Shown: positions 7,653 through 7,808 of the stretch, one piece after another
How the letters are laid out: the number at the start of each line of letters is the position of its first letter
Numbering within the stretch: the stretch's first letter is position 1
Virus record (IMG/VR): IMGVR_UViG_3300025111_000010
Location: 1 to 20,819 of that record
Direction: 5' to 3' (one strand)
DNA length: 20,819 nt
Origin: a virus
Notes under the pieces: model-generated
What the model was told of the DNA's origin: nothing
The model's input: only the letters and a program-made list of their open reading frames with translations
The model's database searches: none
Translations under genes and position numbers: made by a program

Positions 7653-7808
7653 GAAGTTTTTAATTGCTATAGATTACTTGCAGGCTCTGGGGGATTACAC
7701 TATGTGAGAAAGGAGGAAACACATAGTGCAAATAGCATACAAGTATCTATCTTCCAATGTGTGAAAAAGGAAAGGAAAACACACACTAAAACAGCAATTA
7801 AATCCTTC
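7653..7808 (-). ncRNA. Structured RNA with a tight three-way junction and pyrimidine loops
   Basis: On the minus strand these helices nest without conflict. P1: 7793-7802 with 7659-7668, 10 bp, all Watson-Crick. P3: 7780-7791 with 7752-7763, 12 bp including three G-U pairs. P1b: 7740-7750 with 7669-7680, 11 bp with one bulged base. P2, inside P1b: 7720-7731 with 7695-7706, 12 bp including one G-U. Only single unpaired bases (7792, 7751) separate P1, P3 and P1b. The G-U pairs would be A-C mismatches on the plus strand, so the minus strand is the transcript. P2 has the loop UUUCCUCCUUUCU and P3 a 16-base loop of U and C only. An outer GAAG/CUUC pairing (7653-7656 with 7805-7808) may extend P1. 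It lies in the 3' UTR of the 8002 gene, before a terminator. The family is not recognised. Confidence 0.7.

What the first reader, a model, noticed from the sequence alone, without database searches (positions are those of the whole stretch)
7707..7779. All-pyrimidine loops: an anti-Shine-Dalgarno mimic and an RBS complement
Loop P2 (7707-7719) reads UUUCCUCCUUUCU on the transcript; CCUCCUU equals the 16S rRNA anti-SD. Loop P3 (7764-7779) contains UUUUCCUUU, exactly complementary to AAAGGAAAA in the ribosome-binding sites of thymidylate synthase and of the gene starting at 9637, and nearly so to those at 8406 and 1216. Both loops sit on long stems, as expected for exposed antisense loops. This suggests a phage RNA that pairs with phage or host RBSs. 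The other strand would show repeated GGA in loops, as in CsrA sponges, but the G-U evidence argues against that strand.
Basis: partly seen in the sequence, partly recalled or inferred. Interest (0 to 1): 0.72.

Follow-up and report, generated by a model that had tools for sequence, protein, structure and literature searches.

The report
Jumbo-phage RNA mirroring phage ribosome sites
A giant phage and many relatives carry an undescribed ~350-500-base folded RNA whose exposed pyrimidine loops pair, on paper, with the ribosome-binding sites of the phages' own genes, and in several lineages loop and sites have changed together, which suggests an RNA switch that tunes which phage proteins are made.

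Summary
The two pyrimidine loops exist exactly as described, on the minus strand, inside a strongly folded RNA (z about -7) between an SH3DP gene and the DNA polymerase gene of a PhuZ-encoding jumbo phage. The RNA has no Rfam match. Most of the nearer relatives carry a folded RNA at the same syntenic place, and pyrimidine apical loops recur: 21 of 241 strong hairpins, against 1.95 of 148 in shuffles.

The window alone does not prove RBS targeting: 4 of 24 RBSs match at 8 nt or more, but shuffled loops of the same composition give 2.05. Relatives do support it. In several lineages the bases flanking AAGG in phage RBSs match the complement of that phage's own loop: AACAAGG in L019 (24 against 1.5 expected) and FLC9 (12 against 1.3), AGAAAGG in L047, ACCAAGG in L030. 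Permuting loops among 24 genomes never reached the observed score (0/20,000). Seven predictions registered in advance for further, mostly data-poor genomes all missed.

Best reading: a trans-acting, RNAIII-like antisense RNA acting on phage RBSs. Pairing is inferred; repression and timing are untested.

The parts
7615..7945 (-). structured non-coding RNA (core; true 5' end unknown, may start as far as ~7990 as the 3' UTR of the SH3DP gene)
   Evidence: fold z -7.1 for 7611-7945, z -6.9 for 7560-8000; same place and strong folds in relatives
7908..7934 (-). conserved 5' element AAGGGCUUGGUACACCCGGUUUGCC
   Evidence: 37-nt blastn match to L024 at E 1.3e-6; similar GGG..UGGCA..CC elements in L027, L028, L038, L071, L009, FLC9
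7752..7791 (-). hairpin P3; loop 7764-7779 UUUUCCUUUCCUUUUU
   Evidence: 12-bp stem; loop complementary for 10 nt to the TS RBS and the 9637 RBS
7695..7731 (-). hairpin P2; loop 7707-7719 UUUCCUCCUUUCU
   Evidence: 12-bp stem; contains CCUCCUUUCU, equal to the 16S 3' end of Burkholderiales and Firmicutes
7615..7638 (-). terminator-like hairpin GCGGAGCUGGGUUGCCAGCUCCGC, followed by GUUUAUGCC
   Evidence: sequence, fold; relatives have a hairpin then U-rich UUUAUGCCGUC at the same place
8002..8406 (-). upstream neighbour: SH3DP protein (Pfam PF20287, phrog_3235)
5025..7151 (-). downstream neighbour: DNA polymerase (phrog_2927)
4846..4867 (-). candidate target: RBS of thymidylate synthase, AAAAAGGAAAAACA
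   Evidence: 10 nt complementary to P3; TS orthologs in L019, L014, FLC9 also match their own loops
9638..9659 (-). candidate target: RBS of the gene starting at 9637, AUAAAGGAAAACAA
   Evidence: 10 nt complementary to P3 including the closing base

Best explanation
A phage-encoded structured RNA of about 350-500 nt, made from the SH3DP-DNA polymerase intergenic region, displays one or more pyrimidine apical loops. The loops base-pair in trans with the purine-rich Shine-Dalgarno region of a subset of the phage's own mRNAs (thymidylate synthase, dCTP deaminase, ribonucleotide reductase, PicA and others) and most likely hold back ribosome loading on them, giving coordinated translational control during infection. 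Shown by computation: the RNA fold, its synteny and loop conservation, and lineage-specific complementarity between loop and RBSs. Inferred: that pairing happens in cells. Guessed: that the effect is repression, and when.
For: Fold z -7 on the sense strand. Same-place RNAs in relatives. Compensatory changes in the FLC9-type RNA: 27 pairs with both sides changed against 14.8 in shuffles and 4-7 in slid controls. Pyrimidine loops 21/241 against 1.95/148. Own-loop extension of AAGG in RBSs ranks 1 of 64 in L019, FLC9, L047, L051, L037, L034, L028, L030 and 2 of 64 in L014; permutation over 24 genomes 0/20000, with one AAC genome kept 2/20000, with none 39/20000. The motifs sit at RBS positions: AACAAGGA 30 of 39 sites in L019, 19 of 29 in FLC9. 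One orthologous gene's RBS covaries with the own loop in seven lineages, p 0.001. No intramolecular partner for the loops.
Against: Seven predictions registered before the data were fetched all missed; most of those genomes had 7-28 usable RBSs, L071 had 37. Predictions also fail in L024, L055, L026, L031, L039, L076, L077 or are only near misses. L045 matches two of three bases. Lineages are related, so the permutation p values are optimistic. The loops used for L028, L030 and L045 were noted after their RBS motifs had been seen. L047's signal could come from the host 16S tail. In the window itself the RBS matches are not beyond composition. No expression data.
Confidence: 0.6

Rival explanations
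1. The loops mimic the 16S anti-SD or bind a pyrimidine-binding protein, and resemble RBS complements only because RBSs must be purine-rich.
For: Window P2 and the L047 loop equal the 16S tail CCUCCUUUCU; reversed loops match the tail as well as forward ones, 170 against 175, so the order of bases is not specific; composition-shuffled loops do nearly as well in the window.
Against: AAC in FLC9, L019 and L014 and ACC in L030 extend beyond AAGG in ways the 16S tail CCUUUCU does not predict; FLC9 infects Burkholderia glumae, and exact hits to this tail include Paraburkholderia.
Confidence: 0.2
2. The RNA acts mainly on host mRNAs, pairing with host SD sequences to help shut off host translation.
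For: The loops are complementary to generic SD sequences.
Against: It does not explain why the phages' own RBSs carry the lineage-specific extension. Host targets were not tested.
Confidence: 0.08
3. The RNA is a structural 3' UTR or stability element of the SH3DP mRNA, and the loop/RBS matches are chance plus shared ancestry.
For: No promoter was shown; failed registered predictions; related lineages share both loop and RBS habits.
Against: Loop conservation while stems change; permutation results also without the AAC genomes, 39/20000.
Confidence: 0.12

Closest known systems
Staphylococcus aureus RNAIII
   Same: About 514 nt, many hairpins, C-rich loops that pair with the SD region of several mRNAs and block ribosomes (PMC2837412).
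   Different: Bacterial quorum-sensing effector; no sequence relation; here it is phage-borne and the loops co-vary with the phage's own RBSs.
c4 RNA of phages P1 and P7
   Same: Phage antisense RNA with complementary segments probably in loops, acting at an RBS (review PMC12197685).
   Different: Targets one neighbouring gene (ant); here many genes in trans and a much larger RNA.
PreS (lambda) and VpdS (VP882)
   Same: Phage trans-acting small RNAs (PMC12197685).
   Different: About 50-90 nt, Hfq-dependent; PreS acts on host dnaN.
phiKZ ncRNAs from Grad-seq
   Same: Non-coding RNAs of a chimallivirus (PMC8545117).
   Different: They lie in the PHIKZ298 3' UTR and the p40 5' UTR, not at the SH3DP-polymerase locus, where phiKZ has only 201 nt.

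Membership tests
RNAIII-like SD-targeting RNA (by mechanism, not descent) | large structured RNA with C-rich apical loops | tested here: met
RNAIII-like SD-targeting RNA (by mechanism, not descent) | loops complementary to SD of several mRNAs | tested here: met
   in relatives; in the window alone not beyond composition
RNAIII-like SD-targeting RNA (by mechanism, not descent) | pairing blocks ribosome binding | not testable with these tools
   needs toeprinting or reporters
Any Rfam 15 family | match at the gathering score | tested here: not met
   best sub-threshold E 0.33
CsrA/RsmA sponge (plus strand) | GGA loops on a stably folded transcript of that strand | tested here: not met
   plus strand z -3.5 against -6.9; terminator-like hairpin and gene direction are on the minus strand
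16S anti-SD mimic | loop order specific to the 16S tail | tested here: inconclusive
   P2 identical for 10 nt, but reversed loops match equally well

The most novel reading that the evidence does not exclude
A family of large trans-acting RNAs in nucleus-forming jumbo phages forms a phage-wide translational regulon: each lineage keeps its own loop 'code' and the RBSs of a gene subset co-evolve with it.
Probability: 0.45. Interest if true: 0.88.

Novelty: new variant of a known kind. Interest (0 to 1): 0.74.

Why it matters
How nucleus-forming phages time protein production after mRNA leaves the phage nucleus is poorly understood. A conserved RNA that pairs with a chosen subset of phage ribosome-binding sites, including those of thymidylate synthase and, in two lineages, the nuclear importer PicA, would add a post-transcriptional layer to their programme, and the lineage-specific loop codes make it directly testable.

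Tried and rejected
CsrA sponge on the plus strand (weaker fold, wrong terminator direction). Known Rfam RNA. DNA similarity in named phages (none). Intramolecular pairing of the loops: 5.6 nt own against 5.8 nt other RNAs. Strict anti-SD order: not specific. Whole-RNA 8-mer matching own against other: own sum exceeds permutations (0/20000) but own is rarely first, because poly-U tails add noise. DNA polymerase RBS as a universal target: no. Registered predictions in L025, L048, L035, L054, L029, L071, L027: 0 of 7. The GGTTTCNTCCTTGTTTCC scan also hit unrelated contigs by chance. An alignment of the 5' element was too gapped for a covariance model.

Full report
Observation. Both loops are present at the stated coordinates on the minus strand and sit on 12-bp stems. 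The minus-strand RNA is far more stable than shuffles (z -6.9 for 7560-8000; z -7.1 for 7611-7945); the plus strand is weaker (z -3.5). The region lies between an SH3DP protein gene (Pfam PF20287, phrog_3235) and a small ORF plus the DNA polymerase gene (phrog_2927); the contig also carries PhuZ tubulin and terminase. It is therefore a fragment of a phiKZ-like jumbo phage. There is no Rfam match and no blastn match in named phages.

Relatives. A polymerase profile fetched 80 viral contigs. In most, the SH3DP gene lies upstream of the polymerase, and nearer relatives usually have about 420-580 nt between them. These intergenic RNAs fold strongly (L002 z -6.9; folds). The window and L024 share a 37-nt segment (E 1.3e-6), part of a 5' element AAGGG..UGGCA..CC also recognisable in L027, L028, L038, L071, L009 and Burkholderia phage FLC9. 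In the FLC9-type subgroup, 27 pairs have both sides changed, against 14.8 in shuffles and 4-7 when partners are slid (RNAalifold). Beyond such subgroups, homology rests on synteny, that element and architecture, not on overall sequence.

Loops. Among hairpins with stems of at least 7 bp and loops of 8-20 nt, 21 of 241 have loops at least 85% pyrimidine, against 1.95 of 148 in dinucleotide shuffles; purine loops are not enriched (3 against 1.75) (a few contigs are near-duplicates). Examples (and sequence): UUUCCUCCUUGUUU (L011, L013, L016, L017), UUUCUUCCUUGUUU (FLC9), UUUUUUCCUCGUUUU (L002), UUUUCUCCUUUUU (L039), CUUUCCUCCUUUCU (L047).

RBS complementarity. I extracted RBSs from 20-kb pieces of relatives. 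The triplet upstream of AAGG was compared with the complement of the three bases after CCUU in the phage's own loop. It ranks first of 64 in L019 (AAC 24 against 1.46), FLC9 (AAC 12 against 1.28), L047 (AGA 14 against 2.05), L051, L037, L034, L028 and L030, second in L014, and fails elsewhere. Over 24 genomes, reassigning loops at random never reached the observed score (0/20000); keeping one AAC genome 2/20000; none 39/20000; one AAC genome and no L047 21/20000. The motifs concentrate at RBS positions. An unbiased list of enriched RBS heptamers gave the same picture. Order of discovery matters: I first saw ACAAGGAG in a polymerase RBS, then tested genome-wide; the loops used for L028, L030 and L045 were noted. 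Seven predictions then registered all missed, mostly with few usable RBSs, and none of those genomes showed a strong extension of its own.

Targets. In L019 they include thymidylate synthase, dCTP deaminase, a ribonucleotide reductase, phrog_2943 'polymerase', DNA polymerase and the PicA ortholog (phrog_3141 = phiKZ gp69; gp69 = PicA in PMC12571901). The chimallin shell gene, two RNA polymerase beta subunits, the gp68 ortholog and virion proteins of the same phage lack the motif, so the set is selective and interleaved with non-targets. The RBS of one orthologous ~680-aa protein (phrog_36323/15010, function unknown; not chimallin) follows the own loop in seven lineages: AAACAAGGAA (L019, FLC9), AAACAAGGA (L014), TTAGAAAGGA (L047), GTAAAGGA (L028), CCAAGGAA (L045), AAAAAGG (L051); permutation p 0.001; the other three orthologs tested give p 0.016, 0.13 and 0.10. 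In the window, thymidylate synthase is likewise the best match (10 nt).

Alternatives. The 16S tail CCUCCUUUCU occurs in Burkholderiales and Firmicutes and could explain L047's AGA and the identity of window P2, but not AAC or ACC. The loops have no partner inside their own RNA.

Mechanism. Most likely trans pairing that occludes the SD and lowers translation of a gene subset, working like S. aureus RNAIII (PMC2837412), but with no claim of descent. Pairing is inferred; repression rather than activation, timing and any protein partner are guesses. PubMed Central searches found no description of this RNA; phiKZ's known ncRNAs lie elsewhere.

Noticed in passing
7605-7614 (-): The terminator-like hairpin is followed by UUUAUGCC(GUC), repeated after the terminator in most relatives (e.g. 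UUUUUAUGCCGUC); it may be a phage RNA polymerase promoter or processing signal for the polymerase gene.
   Followed up: no
7708-7717 (-): Loop P2 contains CCUCCUUUCU, identical to the 16S rRNA 3' end of Burkholderiales and Firmicutes, a possible host hint.
   Followed up: partly
L003:4403-4890 and relatives: FLC9-type RNAs have further conserved motifs: a second loop with CCUCCUC, a loop CUCCGCA and an invariant UUGUAACGACCUGUA before the terminator, the last resembling the complement of the 16S 1492 region.
   Followed up: no
L108:5378-5578 (phiKZ): The phiKZ gp49-gp50 gap of 201 nt also folds strongly (z -5.3), with a hairpin similar to one in PA1C; possibly a reduced relative.
   Followed up: no
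11204-11854 (-): The protein looks by eye like an HNH/AP2-type homing endonuclease or DNA-binding protein; not searched.
   Followed up: no
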